Shown here piece after piece: positions 38,133 through 45,570 of a stretch of 64,000 nt of DNA (positions are counted from its first letter, which is position 1; every line of letters starts with the position of its first letter). The stretch is from Lachnospiraceae bacterium MD329 (lineage in GTDB: Bacteria; Bacillota; Clostridia; UBA1381), in contig VIQV01000022.1 in NCBI GenBank assembly GCA_010206265.1, positions 62,167 through 126,166 of the forward strand, written 5' to 3'. The translations under genes were made by a program, and so were the position numbers. Under the pieces are notes generated by a model. It saw nothing but the letters and a program-made list of their open reading frames with translations, made no database searches and had not been told where the DNA came from.

Positions 38133-38169
38133 ATACAATGTATAATTTTGAGTAAGGACGGTGATGTGC

Positions 38170-40650
38170 TTGAAAATAAGTAAAAAAGTAGTATTGTGCG
38201 CCATTTTATCGGCGGTACTGCTTGCTTCGGGTGCACACAAGATAAGCGAGGTTGTACTTGCGTCGTCGGCTGTACCGCAGACTGAGGCGCTTGAACGAGC
38301 AGTGGAATTGTACGAAAGCCTTACACTGTCCGAGGTTGCCGTGCCCGACGGACTGGAGGTAGCGGAGTTTGACGAGGGACTGTTAAAATCAGTAGTGCTC
38401 GGCTACATAAATCTTGAGGATACGCAAGAGGCTTTAGAGGAAAAAACAATAAGGAAACAGGATTTTATATCAATCCTTTACAAGACAATAGTAAGCTATA
38501 ACGACAGCTACACAATATACGAGGACGAATCGAACGCGATTTTAAATAAATGCTACGACAATGCGTACATAGACGAAAAGAACAGAATTCCCTATGCATT
38601 TATGATGAAACAGGGAATAGTGACGGCGAAGTTCGGCAGTGAACCTAATAAGGAGCTTACGCGTGAGGAATGTGAAACGCTTATAACTACGGTTTATGAT
38701 ATGTTTGCTCAGAATGTGACTATGACGGTAAATGGCGGTGAAATCACGGTCGGCTCGAATATCGGTACGGTGATTGACACATTCGGCGAGCCTAACCGCA
38801 TAGACGAAACCGAATACGGCTTTGACTGGTATGTTTATAATGCCGACTGCTCCTCATATTTTATGGTTGGAGTTGAGGCGGACAGAATATGCGCTTTCTA
38901 TTCAAACAGTCAGGCATTTGACATAGACGGTATAAACGCCGGTGACGATTTTGCGCGTACAGCGGATTATACAGATAACCGCTGTTTCAGGTTCTATCAT
39001 ACGCCCGACGGCAAAGTGGATTCGGTGCTTTACAATCCGCGTTACCGCGACGGGGTTGATACAGCCTCAATCAAGCGTTCAAAATCAATGATACTTCTCG
39101 ATATGATAAACGCAAACCGCGCAAAAAATATGCTGCCGATTTACGTTGAGGATTCGCAGATGAGCTCACAAGCTTGGCTTGGTACACTTGGTGTAACGAA
39201 TGAACGCGATGATATGATTACACAATCTGGTTTTGACGTGTTCTCGGTATACAGACAGCTTTTGGAGGACGAAAGCGAAATACTGACACAGGACGCGCTG
39301 TATACGACGGCGGTAGGGATAAGCACTTCTACCGATATGTCGGGCGGAATAAATACAAGTATAATTTCAGATACGGATAAGGCGGCGGCTGTTGAAGAGG
39401 TGCAGACCGTAAGCCTTCCCGACGAGGACTATACCATAAACGGCGTTGACGAAGTAACTGCACCCGTACTGCTGCTTCCGACAATGGAAACGGAGTACCG
39501 TGCGGGTGATGATGTTGTTATACAGCTTGAGGAGCAGACAGCGACGGAATATCACATAGAAATGTTCGATGTTGAGAATGACGAATATGCTGTGAATGAG
39601 TACATAATTACTGATGAAACGGAAATAACTCTTCCTTCCGAGCTGTTTAAGGAAGGACGCGATTACAGACTTATTGTAAGCGCTGTTACCGATTATGGTG
39701 ACGCGCTGAGCGCGGACGAACTGATGTTAAGCTACGGCAGCGCGTATGACAGCGGTGTGGAAATTATAACGCCGTACGCGAACGGCATACTTGACGGTGA
39801 TACGGTTGAAATATCGTGGAAGTCAGACCGTTACCACGATTTTTATGTTGACCTTTATTGTGATAACCGTCTTGTTGCAAGTAAGATAGTCGAGGATGAA
39901 AATGAGGCGGTAATACAGGGCGTCGGAACAGGAAAATGTTTCTTGTATGTTACAGCTCTGAGGCGCGGTACAAAAGTGGAAAAAGCTCAGGACTGCGTTG
40001 CTTTTGAGGTAAAACAGCCTGAACCTGTAATAGACGAAATAATTCTTGACCGTGACGATAAGTACTACTTTGTATACGAGGACGAGGAACTCGGACTGCT
40101 GTACTTCTATGATGAAGAGCTGGTGGACATAGATGAAGGCGGCAGGACTGTAACAAAGAAAAAGATAATCAGAAAACAGGTAAAAGCTACCGCAGGCTAT
40201 AAAAAGCTTGCTCGTTGGCGAAGTAAACCCGAATACACAACCGGTGACCCGACTGTAACGGCACATAATATCCGCTATGACAGCGCAGCGGGCGCGGCGA
40301 TAGTGGCTGAGGCGGAGAAGTATCTCGGCACACCGTATGTCTGGGGCGGAACAACGCCGTCGGGCTTTGACTGTTCGGGACTTGTACAGTATGTGATGAA
40401 TACGCTTGGTATAAATGTAAGCCGTGTTGCGGAGGATCAGTTCAGGAACGGAACTGCTGTAAACCGCGACGAGCTGCAGGCAGGTGATTTGGTTTTCTTT
40501 GAGCAGAACGGATATATTCACCACGTTGGAATATACGCAGGAAACAATATGATGATACACGCTCCGCGTACGGGAGATGTTGTAAAATATCAGTCGATTG
40601 ATACTGATTATTACCGCAGTGAATATGCAGGCGCAAGGCGTGTTTATTGA
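38170..40650 (+). CDS. Secreted multidomain protein with CAP-associated and NlpC/P60 domains
   Basis: 826 residues from TTG (GTG 38161 also possible). Signal peptide (VVLCAILSAVLLASGA), then a weak SLH-like region (~45-185). A CAP-associated domain follows (~195-270: ITVGSNIGTVIDTFGEPNRID). Next is a CAP-like segment (~300-390: LLDMINANRAKNMLPIYVEDSQMS), in which I do not see the usual His/Glu metal site. Two Ig/fibronectin-like modules (~430-610) come next. The C-terminal NlpC/P60 domain (~710-829) has Cys in SGFDCSGLVQYVM, His in HHVGIYAG and a third polar residue in MIHAPRTG. It should cleave peptidoglycan peptides outside the cell. Confidence 0.88.
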   Translation: MKISKKVVLCAILSAVLLASGAHKISEVVLASSAVPQTEALERAVELYESLTLSEVAVPDGLEVAEFDEGLLKSVVLGYINLEDTQEALEEKTIRKQDFISILYKTIVSYNDSYTIYEDESNAILNKCYDNAYIDEKNRIPYAFMMKQGIVTAKFGSEPNKELTREECETLITTVYDMFAQNVTMTVNGGEITVGSNIGTVIDTFGEPNRIDETEYGFDWYVYNADCSSYFMVGVEADRICAFYSNSQAFDIDGINAGDDFARTADYTDNRCFRFYHTPDGKVDSVLYNPRYRDGVDTASIKRSKSMILLDMINANRAKNMLPIYVEDSQMSSQAWLGTLGVTNERDDMITQSGFDVFSVYRQLLEDESEILTQDALYTTAVGISTSTDMSGGINTSIISDTDKAAAVEEVQTVSLPDEDYTINGVDEVTAPVLLLPTMETEYRAGDDVVIQLEEQTATEYHIEMFDVENDEYAVNEYIITDETEITLPSELFKEGRDYRLIVSAVTDYGDALSADELMLSYGSAYDSGVEIITPYANGILDGDTVEISWKSDRYHDFYVDLYCDNRLVASKIVEDENEAVIQGVGTGKCFLYVTALRRGTKVEKAQDCVAFEVKQPEPVIDEIILDRDDKYYFVYEDEELGLLYFYDEELVDIDEGGRTVTKKKIIRKQVKATAGYKKLARWRSKPEYTTGDPTVTAHNIRYDSAAGAAIVAEAEKYLGTPYVWGGTTPSGFDCSGLVQYVMNTLGINVSRVAEDQFRNGTAVNRDELQAGDLVFFEQNGYIHHVGIYAGNNMMIHAPRTGDVVKYQSIDTDYYRSEYAGARRVY

Positions 40651-40667
40651 GAAAGGTTGGGGGACAA

Positions 40668-41315
40668 ATGGTAGAGCTTAGAGCGCGGACGCGCGCAGGA
40701 TACAGACGGAAAAATACGGTTATTGTAACGGCAATGACTCTGCTTTCGGTGTTTTCACTCGCTATGATGGTGTATAACCTGATAAAAAAGGAATGGTTGT
40801 TTTGCGTTGCTTGGTTTATCGCGCTGATTCTGGCGGCAACATACGTTCTTATAAGGATAAATTCCGTTTTTGCGACATATATAGCAACCGACCGCGAAAA
40901 CCTGTATATGAAAAACTGGTCAAACGATTTTCTGCCGTATGATTATGACAGTAAGCTGAAAATTTTCAGTGAGTTTATCCCTGCAAAGACAAAGCTTGTA
41001 GAGATACCTCTTGATGAAATCCATACTGTTGTAATAGGTACGAAAAATTTTGTAAAGCGTAATACCGACGCGTCAATGCCGTTTCATAAGAGTCTGAAAA
41101 AGATTGAAAAGACAAAGGATTTCTATAGAAAAAAAACTTTGTCGAGTATGGATATATTTTATGTGGAAACGTATGCGCGCGAGTGTTACTATATGCCTAT
41201 AGTGAATTTTGACACAAAGGACGTAACAAAAATCGTACAGATTATGGCGCGGAAGAATATTGACTTGGAGCTGAAAGTTGGCAGCCGTGATTATCGTTCT
41301 TTACTAAAAGGATAA
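40668..41315 (+). CDS. Basic membrane protein, unknown
   Basis: 215 residues. Arg-rich N-terminus (RARTRAGYRRKN), then two adjacent hydrophobic helices (VIVTAMTLLSVFSLAMMVYNLI and FCVAWFIALILAATYVLI), and a soluble ~140-residue C-terminus that reads like a PH/bPH-type beta domain (ENLYMKNWSNDF, PLDEIHTVVIG). The function is unknown. The frame begins at 40647 overlapping the preceding stop; I use the ATG at 40668 after GGGGG. It is probably cotranscribed with the wall hydrolase. Confidence 0.65.
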   Translation: MVELRARTRAGYRRKNTVIVTAMTLLSVFSLAMMVYNLIKKEWLFCVAWFIALILAATYVLIRINSVFATYIATDRENLYMKNWSNDFLPYDYDSKLKIFSEFIPAKTKLVEIPLDEIHTVVIGTKNFVKRNTDASMPFHKSLKKIEKTKDFYRKKTLSSMDIFYVETYARECYYMPIVNFDTKDVTKIVQIMARKNIDLELKVGSRDYRSLLKG

Positions 41316-41397
41316 ATGGGTCTTTGTATAAAATCCACAAAAAATGACGAATAAATTATGATAGATTAACAAAATCAGACGTAAAACCAAAAAAGAA

Positions 41398-41426
41398 TTG
41401 AAATTTAATAATAATTAGTTTATAAT
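41398..41426 (+). promoter_or_regulatory. Promoter of the dockerin-like/cohesin-like unit
   Basis: TTGAAA, 17 bases, TATAAT. An ~85-base untranslated leader follows, including a small hairpin (CGCC/GGCG near 41455-41472). Confidence 0.85.
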
Positions 41427-41517
41427 GTAGATATATGAATGTAACTTGTATGTGCGCCGAGCGAAAAGGCGTTCAAACAAAGCAAAAAAATCTAAATTAG
41501 AAAAGGGGTAAACAAAA

Positions 41518-42147
41518 ATGAAGAAATTTACAAAATTATTTCTATCATGCACGGCAGTAGCGGCAATCACAGCTGCGCTTTCTGCATCAGCAATGGCTGC
41601 TGAGGTTGACCTAAAGGGCAGCGACGGTATTGTGGGTACATACGACACCGAAACAGGCGTTGTTTCGTTGACAACATTACCAAATGCAGATGATGCAATC
41701 AAGACAGTGCTTGTTCTTAAGCCTTCTGAAGTTTCGGCTTCTGATACAGGTATTACTGTAGTAGCTGAGAACATTATCGGTATTGACCAGACAGCTGAGC
41801 TTACAGAGGTTAAGCTTGACGCGTCAAAGGTTAATACAGAGAACAACAATTATACTGTTCTTGTTGGCGGTTCATCAGGTAAGGTTTACAAGGCAACATT
41901 TGGCGGTAAAACAGCAGCAGCTAATTACGGTCAGGTTACTTTAGGCGATACAGATATCGACTTTGAAGATGCTGTACTTATCTTAAAGTACGAACTTGAC
42001 AAAGTGACACTTACCGATGAGCAGAAACTTAATGCTAATATTGTAGACATTGAGGCAGGCGAAATCGACTTTGAAGATGCTGTTGATATTCTTAAGTATG
42101 AACTTGATAAACCTTGTGAGCTTAAGAAACTTCTTGGCGAGAATTAA
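41518..42147 (+). CDS. Secreted protein with two dockerin-like repeats
   Basis: 209 residues. Signal peptide (AAITAALSASAMAAE). A ~110-residue beta-rich domain of unknown type, then two related repeats at the C-terminus: LGDTDIDFEDAVLILKYELD (~140-160) and VDIEAGEIDFEDAVDILKY (~180-198), separated by a helix. This is the two-repeat plan of type I dockerins (acidic loop, then DxxxILKYxL helix), but the first Ca2+ loop is shortened and both depart from the DxNxDGxV consensus. It lies 59 bases before a gene with two cohesin-like modules. Dockerin homology is strong in outline but unproven. Confidence 0.7.
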   Translation: MKKFTKLFLSCTAVAAITAALSASAMAAEVDLKGSDGIVGTYDTETGVVSLTTLPNADDAIKTVLVLKPSEVSASDTGITVVAENIIGIDQTAELTEVKLDASKVNTENNNYTVLVGGSSGKVYKATFGGKTAAANYGQVTLGDTDIDFEDAVLILKYELDKVTLTDEQKLNANIVDIEAGEIDFEDAVDILKYELDKPCELKKLLGEN

Positions 42148-42205
42148 TAATTATGCATTAAAAGCTATAACTTTGTTATTATAGTTTGAAGGGAGAACAA
42201 TTAAA

Positions 42206-44716
42206 ATGAAATTAGTTACAAAGAAATTTGTGTCTTTGTTTGCAGCAATGACAATGTTGTTTTCTGTATGTGGTGTTTTTGCAAATGCTGCATCAAATGC
42301 AGACAGCATAGACGCAGGATATGTATTAGTGTTTGATGAGGCAGCTTCTAATGTCAATCAAGCAGTTGTAAAAGTACAGTTAAAAAATATTGCAGGTCCA
42401 TTTAGCGGTATGAATTTTACACTTCCAGTAGACACAGAGTATGTTGATGTAGAAAAGCTTACAGATGCATCATACGTGTTTGACGCAAATGTAAAGAATG
42501 CTAATGGCGGAGCAAGTTATTCAGAAGGCACAGGAATCAAGATGAATTGTGCGAGCGGTGCTGGATTTGCGCTTGCAAATGCAGATGGTACGGTAGTAAC
42601 AATCACATTACCGTTAAAGAAGGCTATTACTTCATCTATGACATTGACACTTTCAGCAGGAAAGATTACACCGGCGGAAGGAAATAAATATCAAATAGGT
42701 GCAGAAACAACAGAAACAGTTGTTGGTATTACAGCTCCGACAGTAGATGTTCCAAGAGATCCAAGTACACCTCCAAGCACGGTTGATCGTCCGGGTGAAG
42801 AAGAATTGCCGGTAGGTCCAACTCCGATAGAACCGCAGCCGGATACAGGATATAATCTTGTACTTGACAAAGCTAATACAGATTTAACATCAAAGGTTAC
42901 TGTAAAGGTACAGTTAAAGAATATTGCAGGTCCATTCAGTGGTATGAACTTTACACTTCCGGTTGATACAGATGTCATTGATGTAGAAAAGCTTACAGAT
43001 ACATCATATGAGTTTGATGCTAATGTAAAGAATGCTAACGGTGGAGCAAGCTATTCAGAAGGCACAGGAATCAAGATGAATTGTGCAAGTGGAGCAGGAT
43101 TTGCGCTTGCAAATGCAGATGGTACAGTAGTAACAATTACATTACCGTTAAAGAAAGCTATTACTAGCTACATAGATATGACACTTTCAGCAGGAAAGAT
43201 TACACCTGCAGAAGGAAATAAATATCAAATAGGTGCAGAAACAACAGAAACAGTTGTTGGTATTACAGCTCCAATTTTGAGAGTTGATCCAGAAGATTTT
43301 GGAACTAAGCCTGTCGTTAAGAAGACAGCTGCTTTGAAGGATTATACTGATAAAGACGCTGCAACAGCTGCTAAGGCTGTAGAAGATGCAGGTAAGACAA
43401 CATATATGACAGTTGACGTTAAGAAAGACGGCGTAGCTGCAACATATGGTTCAGACTTTATCGCTAAGTATGATGGTAAGGAAATCAAGACTGTTGAAGA
43501 ATATAAAAACATAATTCACGGTTATGTAGCAGACAAGAAAGTTTCAGATGTTATCGCTAAGATGACATTTGAGTTCTATACAGATGGTAAGTTTGCAATT
43601 TCAACTACAGTAAATGCTGCAGAAGATGAAATTCAGTTAGTACCTCCTGTAGAAGATAAGGAAGTTGGCGGCGGCAATGAGCCGGAGCCTCCAAAGCCAT
43701 CAGAGCCTAAGTTTAAAGCAAACTTCAATCCATCAAGACCTGATGTTGGTGACACTGTAGTAGTTACAGCTGAAATTTCAGACGCTACAGATGTAACAAT
43801 TACATTTGACGAGGCTGCTTTCAAGGCTGATACAGATTCAGCTAACCTTGTATCTTACCTTGGTATCTATCCTAAGAAGGATGTAGATAACTCAACAGAG
43901 GATGATACAAAGTATCTTGAAAACACTTGGGAATTCAAGGCTATGGCTGCAGGTGAACTGACAGTTCCGTTCAAGGTTTCTTATACAAAGGTATCTGACG
44001 GTACAAAGGTTACAGACGAAGTTCAGAAAGCAACTGTTAAAATCAGCGAAGTAGATAACAACAATGGCGGTAACGGCGGCTCAGGCAGCGGAGATAAGGA
44101 TAATGGCAATAATAGTGGCGGTGGCGCTATAGCTCCTCCTGCAAACGGTGGTGTAAATGGTGGTCTATTCACATCATTCTCTGACTTAGATCAGGCTGAA
44201 TGGGCTAAGCAGGCTATAATGGTACTTTCAGTTAAGGGTATAGTTTCAGGTTACGGCGACGGTACATTCAACCCGAACGGTAACATCACAAGAGCAGAAT
44301 ACTGCCAGATTCTTATCGGCGCAATCGGTAAGACAAACTTAGCTGCAGACGTTCTATTCAATGATGTACCTTCAGAGGCTTGGTACTATCACGCAGTATC
44401 AGTAGCTAACTCACTTGGTATTGTATCAGGTTACGGCGATGGTAACTTCGGTCCGAACGACTTGATTACAAGACAGGATATGGCTCTTATGACATATAAG
44501 GCTGCTCAGGTAATGAACAAAGATGTATCTTCTGTAAGAACAATGTCATTTGCTGACGCTGGTTCAATTGCTGAATATGCTGCAACAGCTGTTCAGACAC
44601 TTGCAGACGCAGGTATCATCAATGGTGTATCTGATACAGAGTTTGCTCCGGTAGCTAACGCTACAAGAGCTCAGGCTGCTAAGATTCTTTACGATACATT
44701 TGTAAAGGTTAACTAA
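42206..44716 (+). CDS. SLH-anchored surface protein with duplicated cohesin-like modules
   Basis: 836 residues. Signal peptide (~27). Two beta-sandwich modules at ~35-180 and ~215-360 resemble cohesins (VVKVQLKNIAGPFSGMNFTL ... GTVVTITLPLKKAI) and are nearly identical. A Pro-rich linker of ~35 residues separates them. Then an unknown Lys-rich domain (~370-480), a further Ig-like module (~505-610), a Gly/Asn-rich linker and three SLH domains (~655-836) that bind the wall polymer. Together with the preceding dockerin-like protein this has the plan of a small anchoring scaffold. Codons are unusually uniform (GCT/GCA/AAG/ACA), as in abundant surface proteins. Confidence 0.82.
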   Translation: MKLVTKKFVSLFAAMTMLFSVCGVFANAASNADSIDAGYVLVFDEAASNVNQAVVKVQLKNIAGPFSGMNFTLPVDTEYVDVEKLTDASYVFDANVKNANGGASYSEGTGIKMNCASGAGFALANADGTVVTITLPLKKAITSSMTLTLSAGKITPAEGNKYQIGAETTETVVGITAPTVDVPRDPSTPPSTVDRPGEEELPVGPTPIEPQPDTGYNLVLDKANTDLTSKVTVKVQLKNIAGPFSGMNFTLPVDTDVIDVEKLTDTSYEFDANVKNANGGASYSEGTGIKMNCASGAGFALANADGTVVTITLPLKKAITSYIDMTLSAGKITPAEGNKYQIGAETTETVVGITAPILRVDPEDFGTKPVVKKTAALKDYTDKDAATAAKAVEDAGKTTYMTVDVKKDGVAATYGSDFIAKYDGKEIKTVEEYKNIIHGYVADKKVSDVIAKMTFEFYTDGKFAISTTVNAAEDEIQLVPPVEDKEVGGGNEPEPPKPSEPKFKANFNPSRPDVGDTVVVTAEISDATDVTITFDEAAFKADTDSANLVSYLGIYPKKDVDNSTEDDTKYLENTWEFKAMAAGELTVPFKVSYTKVSDGTKVTDEVQKATVKISEVDNNNGGNGGSGSGDKDNGNNSGGGAIAPPANGGVNGGLFTSFSDLDQAEWAKQAIMVLSVKGIVSGYGDGTFNPNGNITRAEYCQILIGAIGKTNLAADVLFNDVPSEAWYYHAVSVANSLGIVSGYGDGNFGPNDLITRQDMALMTYKAAQVMNKDVSSVRTMSFADAGSIAEYAATAVQTLADAGIINGVSDTEFAPVANATRAQAAKILYDTFVKVN
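42368..42738 (+). repeat. Cohesin-like module, copy 1 (direct repeat)
   Basis: 371 bases matching 42902-43272 without gaps. By hand count ~40 differences (about 89 % identity), many of them synonymous, with a cluster of changes near 42635-42650. Confidence 0.9.
42902..43272 (+). repeat. Cohesin-like module, copy 2 (direct repeat)
   Basis: Second copy of the in-frame duplication described at 42368. The start-to-start distance is 534 bases. Confidence 0.9.
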
Positions 44717-44735
44717 TTTAAATATTAGTAAATAT

Positions 44736-44766
44736 AAGAACAGTCCCTCGGGACTGTTCTTTTTTA
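44736..44766 (+). terminator. Terminator after the cohesin-like gene
   Basis: AAGAACAGTCCC/GGGACTGTTCTT with a very short loop, then six T residues. Confidence 0.93.
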
Positions 44767-44838: not shown

Positions 44839-44867
44839 TTGCAATTCAGTGATTTTTTTGTTATAAT
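44839..44867 (+). promoter_or_regulatory. Promoter of ung
   Basis: TTGCAA, 17 bases, TATAAT. Confidence 0.82.
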
Positions 44868-44895
44868 ATACATATATAGCAAAGGGGGCACACAG

Positions 44896-45570
44896 ATGGT
44901 TAACATAGGGAACGACTGGGACAATATTTTAGATGGTGAATTTGACAAGGAATACTATAAAAAATTGCGTGCCTTTTTGAAAGCGGAATATTCAACACAT
45001 AATATCCATCCTGATATGTATGACATTTTTAATGCGTTAAAATGGACGTCATATGCAGATACAAAGGTGGTTATACTTGGTCAGGACCCTTACCACGAGG
45101 TGGGTCAGGCACACGGGCTTGCATTTTCCGTACAGCGTGGGGTTAAGATTCCTCCGTCGCTGCTTAATATGTATAAGGAACTTCAAGATGAACTTGGTTT
45201 ATATATACCGAATAACGGCTATCTGGAAAAATGGGCGCGTCAGGGAGTATTGCTTTTAAACTCTTCTTTGACTGTTCGTGACGGAATGGCAAATTCTCAT
45301 CGTAATAAGGGTTGGGAAATATTTACTGACCGTGTTGTAGAGTTGCTTAATTTAAGAGAAGAACCTGTAATCTTTATGCTTTGGGGCAATAACGCTAAAG
45401 AAAAGATAAAAGTAATTACAGGTACACATCATAAAATTTTGACGGCGGCTCATCCAAGTCCGTTGTCGGCAAGCCGGGGATTTTTCGGCTGCGGTCACTT
45501 CAAAACGGCAAACCGTTTATTAAAGGAAATGGGTAAGAAGCCGATTGACTGGCAGATAGAAAATATTTAG
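44896..45570 (+). CDS. ung: Uracil-DNA glycosylase (family 1)
   Basis: 224 residues. Removes uracil from DNA after cytosine deamination or dUTP incorporation. Catalytic water-activating Asp in [21 protein letters not shown] and the leucine-loop motif [17 protein letters not shown] are intact. The frame opens at 44839, upstream of the promoter -10, and the ATG at 44896 follows AAAGGGGG by 9 bases. It heads a run of housekeeping genes through uppP. Confidence 0.98.

What the first reader, a model, noticed from the sequence alone, without database searches (positions are those of the whole stretch)
41398..44766. Two-gene surface complex: dockerin-like protein plus SLH-anchored double cohesin-like protein
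The first product ends in two repeats (DIDFEDAVLILKYELD and EIDFEDAVDILKYELD) with the two-helix plan of dockerins but altered Ca2+ loops. The second has two cohesin-like beta-sandwiches and three SLH domains. They share a consensus promoter and a strong terminator, 59 bases apart. The classical cohesin-dockerin partnership makes a self-assembling, wall-anchored mini-scaffold the natural reading. The dockerin-like protein has no enzyme domain, so it may be an adaptor or a structural subunit rather than a cellulosome enzyme. Other dockerin-like proteins could dock to the same scaffold. This is the best candidate in the window for an undescribed system.
Basis: partly seen in the sequence, partly recalled or inferred. 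Interest (0 to 1): 0.75.

Follow-up and report, generated by a model that had tools for sequence, protein, structure and literature searches.

The report
Private lock-and-key cell-surface protein pair
Two neighbouring bacterial genes appear to make a wall-anchored protein with two sockets and a small partner with the matching plug, a pairing best known from cellulose-digesting machines but here apparently used for an abundant non-enzymatic surface coat whose plug and socket differ greatly from one species to the next.

Summary
ORF1 (41518-42147, 209 aa) has a signal peptide, an Ig-like domain and a dockerin fold (model aligns to 62 of 62 residues of dockerin 2ccl_B at 1.1 A), although Pfam sees no dockerin and both calcium loops are degenerate. 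ORF2 (42206-44716, 836 aa) has two Pfam cohesins and three SLH domains. The pair is not peculiar to this genome: in 42 of 47 loci examined (window included) the ORF1 gene is followed within 127 bases by a partner gene, mostly SLH-anchored with two near-identical cohesin-like modules. Modules are alike within a protein and very different between species. ORF2 and ORF1 have the two highest codon-adaptation values of 58 window ORFs, above the ribosomal mean. Promoter and a leader hairpin are conserved in most of the closer relatives. Best reading: a dedicated, highly expressed, non-enzymatic cohesin-dockerin surface complex, perhaps the S-layer or main coat, with species-private specificity, possibly calcium-independent here. 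Binding is not shown: a tethered AlphaFold model of a relative gave no confident docking. Eight library searches listed no description of this system. New variant of a known kind.

The parts
41398..41426 (+). promoter TTGAAA-17-TATAAT
   Evidence: 11 of 12 matches; TATAAT identical in 21 of 21 aligned leaders, which were chosen out of 32 because the element was recognisable
41427..41517 (+). 5' leader of the operon, including TATATGAATGTAACTTGTATG and a ribosome-binding site AAGGGG at 41503-41508
   Evidence: the leader motif occurs once in the genome at up to 3 mismatches
41452..41474 (+). leader hairpin, arms 41452-41458 and 41468-41474
   Evidence: covariation on an alignment not fitted to it: 89.5% of cells paired, 4 of 6 pairs changed on both sides, slid versions 12-58% paired
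41518..42147 (+). ORF1, 209 aa, secreted dockerin-type protein
41518..41598 (+). ORF1 signal peptide (residues 1-27, by eye)
   Evidence: sequence; alike in relatives
41602..41904 (+). ORF1 Ig-like beta-sandwich domain (residues 29-129)
41920..42114 (+). ORF1 dockerin fold with two degenerate calcium loops (residues 135-199)
42206..44716 (+). ORF2, 836 aa, SLH-anchored double-cohesin protein
42350..42721 (+). cohesin module 1
   Evidence: Pfam PF00963, C45:104516-104887
42857..43252 (+). cohesin module 2
   Evidence: Pfam PF00963, C45:105023-105418; 83% identical to module 1 over 155 residues
43262..44125 (+). ORF2 middle region (residues 353-640), stalk-like; its first part has matches in many relatives
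44174..44680 (+). three SLH domains (44174-44302, 44357-44485, 44546-44680)
44736..44766 (+). intrinsic terminator, 11-bp stem and T run

Best explanation
The operon makes a dedicated, non-enzymatic cohesin-dockerin surface complex. ORF2 is held on the cell wall by its SLH domains and displays two near-identical cohesins; ORF1 is secreted, docks through its C-terminal dockerin and presents its Ig-like domain outwards. Each ORF2 should hold up to two ORF1. Both look very highly expressed, so the complex is probably a main coat (S-layer or S-layer-like) of this family. The dockerin has two like faces, as in dual-binding dockerins, and the interface diversifies quickly while staying matched inside each species, so each species has its own private plug and socket. 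In the window species both calcium loops are degenerate, so docking there may need little or no calcium. Shown: folds, gene pairing, conservation, within-protein identity, codon bias, leader hairpin. Inferred: binding, stoichiometry, coat role, calcium independence, reason for the divergence.
Against: No binding data. The read-through fusion of L057 gave pTM 0.39 and pLDDT about 40-75 over the dockerin, so no docking can be claimed. A first, loosely bounded co-variation test was weak (r 0.18, P 0.04; partial 0.13, P 0.10). Low within-protein mismatch is not confined to recognition positions: positions 5 and 13 have 1 and 0 of 30, and position 15, a contact in PMC5429695, has 10 of 30. Pfam sees cohesin in 2 of 28 partners and dockerin in 13 of 32 ORF1s. 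Foldseek alone ranks Ig-like chains above the dockerins for ORF1, none at E 0.001, and for L057 ranks some adhesins above single cohesins. Other dockerin proteins exist in the genome. The genome has 116 SLH matches, and one other SLH frame has equal codon bias (L179, 0.826), so ORF2 need not be the only coat protein. Codon bias is not a measure of protein amount.
Confidence: 0.68

Rival explanations
1. A small cellulosome-like scaffold: ORF2 mainly collects dockerin-bearing enzymes encoded elsewhere, and ORF1 is one client among several.
For: Two other dockerin-bearing proteins over the Pfam cut-off and one weak one in the genome, one with an M60 peptidase domain; two more cohesin-bearing proteins, one under the cut-off.
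Against: None of the three has a glycoside hydrolase hit in Pfam at E 0.01; by eye their repeats carry mostly intact calcium loops and other recognition residues; ORF2 has no carbohydrate-binding module hit; clients would not explain why a partner gene follows ORF1 in 42 of 47 loci.
Confidence: 0.14
2. The two proteins do not dock in this species: the dockerin is decaying after losing its calcium loops, and ORF2 works alone as an adhesin or coat protein that merely uses the cohesin fold.
For: Both calcium loops have lost the ligands at positions 1 and 3. The tethered model of a relative showed no confident docking.
Against: The fold is still predicted with confidence; both repeats keep nearly the same recognition helix (positions 9-24, 88% identical); codon bias of ORF1 is second highest in the window; a decaying gene should not keep these.
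Confidence: 0.12
3. The cohesin-like modules bind an outside ligand (host mucin, fibre or another microbe) and diversify with it; ORF1 is an accessory.
For: Cohesin modules change faster at amino-acid sites than the SLH part in 5 of 5 species pairs compared; MSCRAMM-type adhesins share the broad fold and rank high in Foldseek.
Against: Recognition positions of the dockerin diversify too and co-vary with the cohesin; cohesins rank above adhesins in the VIA comparison, with a tie at its low end.
Confidence: 0.06

Closest known systems
Cell-surface anchoring scaffoldins with SLH domains (OlpA, OlpC, SdbA of Clostridium thermocellum; architecture recalled; OlpA and OlpC cohesin structures appear)
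   Same: Secreted protein with cohesin modules, a linker and SLH domains that holds dockerin proteins on the wall.
   Different: There the dockerins belong to enzymes or enzyme scaffolds (recalled). Here the partner is a small neighbour-encoded protein without an enzyme domain, and both genes look very highly expressed.
Type I dockerins with dual binding mode (C. thermocellum, C. cellulolyticum; PMC5429695 passages)
   Same: Duplicated loop-helix repeat, same fold, recognition residues alike in both repeats.
   Different: Window copy has no Pfam-level match and degenerate calcium loops; recognition residues differ strongly from species to species.
Non-cellulosomal cohesin-dockerin pairs (Clostridium perfringens two-protein complex, cited in PMC5429695; Archaeoglobus fulgidus cohesin 2xdh)
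   Same: Cohesin-dockerin modules used outside a cellulosome.
   Different: The passage in PMC5429695 reports a single binding mode for the C. perfringens case; here both repeats look equivalent, and the anchor is SLH.
Scaffoldin-containing bacteria unlikely to make conventional cellulosomes (Lachnoclostridium sp. MSJ-17, Paenibacillus guangzhouensis; PMC11557425, section 15 read)
   Same: Largest scaffoldin with two cohesins; SLH-anchoring scaffoldins in P. guangzhouensis.
   Different: No operon of a dockerin protein and its own anchor is described in that section.

Membership tests
Cohesin (PF00963) | Sequence match over the curated cut-off | tested here: met
   41.3 bits against 24.1, two stretches, window ORF2
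Cohesin (PF00963) | Cohesin fold | tested here: met
Cohesin (PF00963) | Binds a dockerin | not testable with these tools
   Tethered model of L057 had pTM 0.39; no interface can be read
Dockerin type I (PF00404) | Sequence match over the curated cut-off | tested here: not met
   No Dockerin_1 hit in window ORF1 at E 1; 13 of 32 aligned ORF1 proteins match at E 0.01
Dockerin type I (PF00404) | Duplicated loop-helix repeat and dockerin fold | tested here: met
Dockerin type I (PF00404) | Calcium ligands at loop positions 1, 3, 5, 12 in both repeats | tested here: not met
   Window lacks 1 and 3 in both repeats; by a strict rule 17 of 30 species have all four in both repeats, 4 in one, 9 in neither
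Cellulosome | Dockerin-bearing glycoside hydrolases | tested here: not met
   ORF1 has no enzyme hit; the three other dockerin-bearing proteins found have no glycoside hydrolase hit. Genome about 91% complete
Cellulosome | Carbohydrate-binding module on the scaffoldin | tested here: not met
   No such Pfam hit in ORF2 at E 1
S-layer protein | Wall anchor by three SLH domains and secretion signal | tested here: met
   N-terminal signal seen by eye
S-layer protein | Very high expression | tested here: inconclusive
   CAI 0.80 and 0.77, ranks 1 and 2 of 58 window ORFs, ribosomal mean 0.727, ribosomal range 0.64-0.82; codon bias only
S-layer protein | Two-dimensional lattice | not testable with these tools
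   needs electron microscopy

The most novel reading that the evidence does not exclude
A two-component bacterial coat in which the outer protein is clipped onto an SLH-anchored protein by cohesin-dockerin docking, with a lock and key that is remade in every species while the two sockets and the two faces of the plug stay matched within it: a natural series of dozens of orthogonal, in part calcium-independent, cohesin-dockerin pairs.
Probability: 0.38. Interest if true: 0.85.

Novelty: new variant of a known kind. Interest (0 to 1): 0.63.

Why it matters
Cohesin-dockerin docking is studied mostly as cellulosome assembly. If this is right, a family of largely uncultured Clostridia uses it for an abundant surface coat, and offers dozens of naturally diverged one-to-one pairs in which the rules of dockerin specificity, dual binding and calcium need can be tested directly. 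It also shows that Pfam misses most of these cohesins (2 of 28 partners matched) and more than half of these dockerins (13 of 32 matched), so surveys based on it undercount the interaction.

Tried and rejected
Sequence searches of the PDB with ORF1 (one weak, unconvincing hit) and with the N-terminal part of ORF2 (none) did not help. NCBIfam gave for ORF2 one SLH-region match far under its cut-off and one weak match, nothing for ORF1; PHROGs matched only the SLH part of ORF2. Rfam found no family at 41300-42250. Folding the window leader alone gave z -1.19, not notable; the case for the hairpin rests on covariation, where one measure, the number of further pair types, was not beyond the shuffles (61 of 500 as high). 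The stem table picked the best stem in each sequence, so its pairing is by construction and is not used as proof. Only 21 of 32 leaders were aligned, those with a recognisable element; L051, L060 and L075 have a related but more divergent one, and L055, L056, L061, L062, L068, L073 and L074 show none by eye, while L059 is cut off by the contig end. Three co-variation measures were run: a weak one on loosely bounded repeats and two on 16-residue cores; all are given. In the closest pair of species (L043, L044) the two cohesin copies within a protein are not closer at silent sites than the same copy between species; in the other four pairs they are. A wish to call the window's calcium loops shortened was dropped: counted back from the last ligand they are not short, only degenerate. 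Library searches for a published description; listings seen, nothing on this system noticed. That is no proof of absence, since most subscription journals are not held. Two alignments for the complex model (A4, A5) were dropped because some partner rows were misaligned; A6 was used. L069, L072, L076 (unrelated frames), L066 and L071 (dockerins on long proteins) were dropped before the ORF1 alignment; L052 and L064 (truncated, or a single repeat) before the repeat counts; L058 gave no ORF1 frame in the ORF calling.
Full report
Observation. The window is contig C45:62167-126166 of a 2.74-Mb draft genome of 86 contigs, about 91% complete. The nine named relatives found are MAGs labelled uncultured Clostridia (six, five of them with isolate names 'Lapin'), Oscillospiraceae (two) or Bacillota (one).

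The calcium loops. Counted back from the last ligand (position 12), the window's loops read V-T-L-G-D and V-D-I-E-A at positions 1-5, so positions 1 and 3 are lost in both repeats and 5 is kept only in the first. By a strict rule (D or N at 1; D, N or S at 3 and 5; D or E at 12) 17 of 30 ORF1 proteins have all ligands in both repeats, 4 in one and 9 in neither. Of the nine, three (L056, L063, L074) fail only by a threonine at position 3, which PMC5590126 (passage) mentions as an occasional residue there, and L065 has an insertion that was read without a gap. That leaves five with plainly altered loops: the window, L050, L054, L062 and L075. Full loops are the commonest state.

A conserved two-gene system. 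A single-sequence search with ORF1 hit 37 of 150 related genomes. A profile of 32 rows hit 67 of 70 genomes of the family, all 17 genera, 26 of 26 of those at least 90% complete; many of these are partial matches, and by my reading of that table 45 of 70 genomes have a near full-length one. In the wider class 95 of 392 genomes match at 1e-9 (family members included), many with the dockerin or N-terminal part alone. I looked at the flanks of 47 loci: 32, the window among them, and 15. In 42 the next gene on the same strand begins within 10-127 bases; its product starts like a secreted protein by eye, and two partners (L070, L126) are cut by the contig end. In three loci (L040, L052, L132) the contig ends first; two (L055, L138) lack such a neighbour. 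Of 28 partners scanned 21 have SLH domains; most of the others are shorter proteins without a visible anchor. In the second set four more partners have SLH, one tested (L140) and three by eye. Pfam recognises cohesin in only 2 of the 28, but 20 of 28 carry two tandem modules, those of L057 have the cohesin fold, and in L139 the neighbour is an unmistakable cohesin.

A private lock and key. The two cohesin modules of one protein are 62-88% identical (median 79%), while the first module in two species is 22% identical at the median (largest 64%), 20 proteins compared. For the dockerin repeats, 60 of 60 find their best match, ties allowed, in their own sibling; identity over positions 9-24 is 0.88 within and 0.25 between, medians of 30 proteins. 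This is not uniform. Positions 10, 14, 17 and 18 differ between the two repeats in 1, 1, 1 and 2 of 30 proteins although they differ between species in 91, 86, 57 and 90% of comparisons, while positions 6, 16 and 24 differ within the protein in 17-18 of 30. I picked out those four after seeing the table; positions 5 and 13 are as uniform. A set fixed beforehand from recall (10, 11, 17, 18, 22; 10 and 17 are named in a passage of PMC5590126, 11 in one of PMC5429695, which also names 15) has a mean within/between ratio of 0.11 against 0.34 for the other variable positions, exact P 0.018, or 0.027 after leaving out four rows. Silent sites within proteins are well diverged (median pS 0.37 for 20 pairs of cohesin copies and 0.49 for 30 pairs of dockerin repeats), so the identity is not just very recent copying. 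Dockerin and cohesin similarity co-vary among 19 species: by BLOSUM score r 0.32, P 0.0014, and given N-domain and SLH similarity r 0.27, P 0.003; by identity r 0.25, P 0.014, partial 0.22, P 0.016; N-domain with cohesin given the rest r 0.11, P 0.08. A looser first test was weak. Cohesin modules change faster at amino-acid sites than the SLH part in 5 of 5 species pairs, by 1.1 to about 5 times.

An abundant product. With 20 frames of the ribosomal-protein cluster around L5 of the same genome as reference (recognised by position and by eye), ORF2 (0.80) and ORF1 (0.77) have the highest codon-adaptation index of 58 window ORFs of at least 120 aa; the reference mean is 0.727 and the window median 0.579. 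In relatives, measured with the same reference, ORF2 exceeds every other ORF of at least 150 aa in the locus in 28 of 29 loci and ORF1 in 25 of 29. Among the frames at 30 SLH loci of this genome, of 116 SLH matches and some sharing a protein, one other frame is as biased (L179, 0.826; ORF2's own two pieces 0.835 and 0.823), so there may be more than one major SLH protein. In 21 aligned leaders out of 32 the promoter and leader are better conserved (mean column identity 67%) than the proteins (26% and 21%, over other sets of rows). The leader hairpin shows covariation on an alignment made without it: 12 cells changed on both sides against 2.8 in shuffles. The leader motif occurs only once in the genome. 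A 5' hairpin and strong promoter fit a long-lived, abundant mRNA (inference).

Other cohesin and dockerin proteins of the genome. Two more cohesin-bearing proteins with a copper amine oxidase N-terminal domain (one under the cut-off), two dockerin-bearing ones over the cut-off and one under it; one has a peptidase M60 domain, none a glycoside hydrolase hit. By eye their repeats differ from ORF1's in the recognition helix, so a second, separate cohesin-dockerin set is likely.

Complex model. The tool folds one chain, so I folded relative L057, whose two genes lie in one frame, as a read-through chain. The domains are good (cohesins pLDDT mostly 88-97) but pTM is 0.39 and the dockerin region is at about 40-75. 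This shows neither docking nor its absence.

Comparison. The parts are those of cellulosome anchoring scaffoldins, but the defining cellulosome features tested (dockerin-bearing glycoside hydrolases, carbohydrate-binding module) are not met. PMC5429695 (passages read) says that dual binding comes from internal symmetry, and that some non-cellulosomal dockerins, including a C. perfringens two-protein case, are single-mode; the symmetry seen here would be an exception. PMC11557425 (abstract, outline and one section read) describes bacteria with small scaffoldins and few enzymes but, in what I read, not this operon. The other papers were seen as listings only, except PMC5590126 (passages).

Verdict. 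A real, conserved, dedicated cohesin-dockerin surface pair: likely. Abundant coat: probable. Private specificity: well supported by sequence, untested by binding. Calcium independence in this species: inferred from loop degeneration.

Noticed in passing
window 41427-41517: 5' leader with a covarying hairpin and a stretch (TATATGAATGTAACTTGTATG) nearly unchanged in the same-genus leaders aligned; may be an mRNA-stability element.
   Followed up: partly
L080 and L081 (G000:C3:40000-75000): A second surface cluster: giant SLH proteins (1567 and 2421 aa frames) beside two large proteins that end in dockerin-type repeats sharing the motif DGSVNAVDAN.
   Followed up: partly
L077:6538-7728 and L078:6960-7928: Cohesin domains (the second under the cut-off) joined to copper amine oxidase N-terminal domains; the same pairing follows an ORF1-type gene in L139.
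   Followed up: partly
L079:8055-12926: 1623-aa protein with a dockerin near its N-terminus, FnIII domains and a peptidase M60 (enhancin-like) domain.
   Followed up: no
L141, L142, L143, L144: The N-terminal domain of ORF1 also occurs on other small secreted proteins without dockerins in some relatives, and the profile matches within frames of about 2100 aa in several same-genus genomes.
   Followed up: no
G000, whole genome: 116 SLH matches: a surface rich in SLH proteins.
   Followed up: no
window 38161-41315 and 44839-45570: Gene order around the operon (NlpC/P60 protein and a 222-aa protein upstream; a gene that I take from recall for uracil-DNA glycosylase downstream) recurs in some same-genus loci such as L043 and L048.
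   Followed up: partly
L064:3904-4446 and L064:4540-7422: One relative has a single dockerin repeat and three tandem cohesin-like modules by eye, a natural test of the dual-face idea.
   Followed up: no
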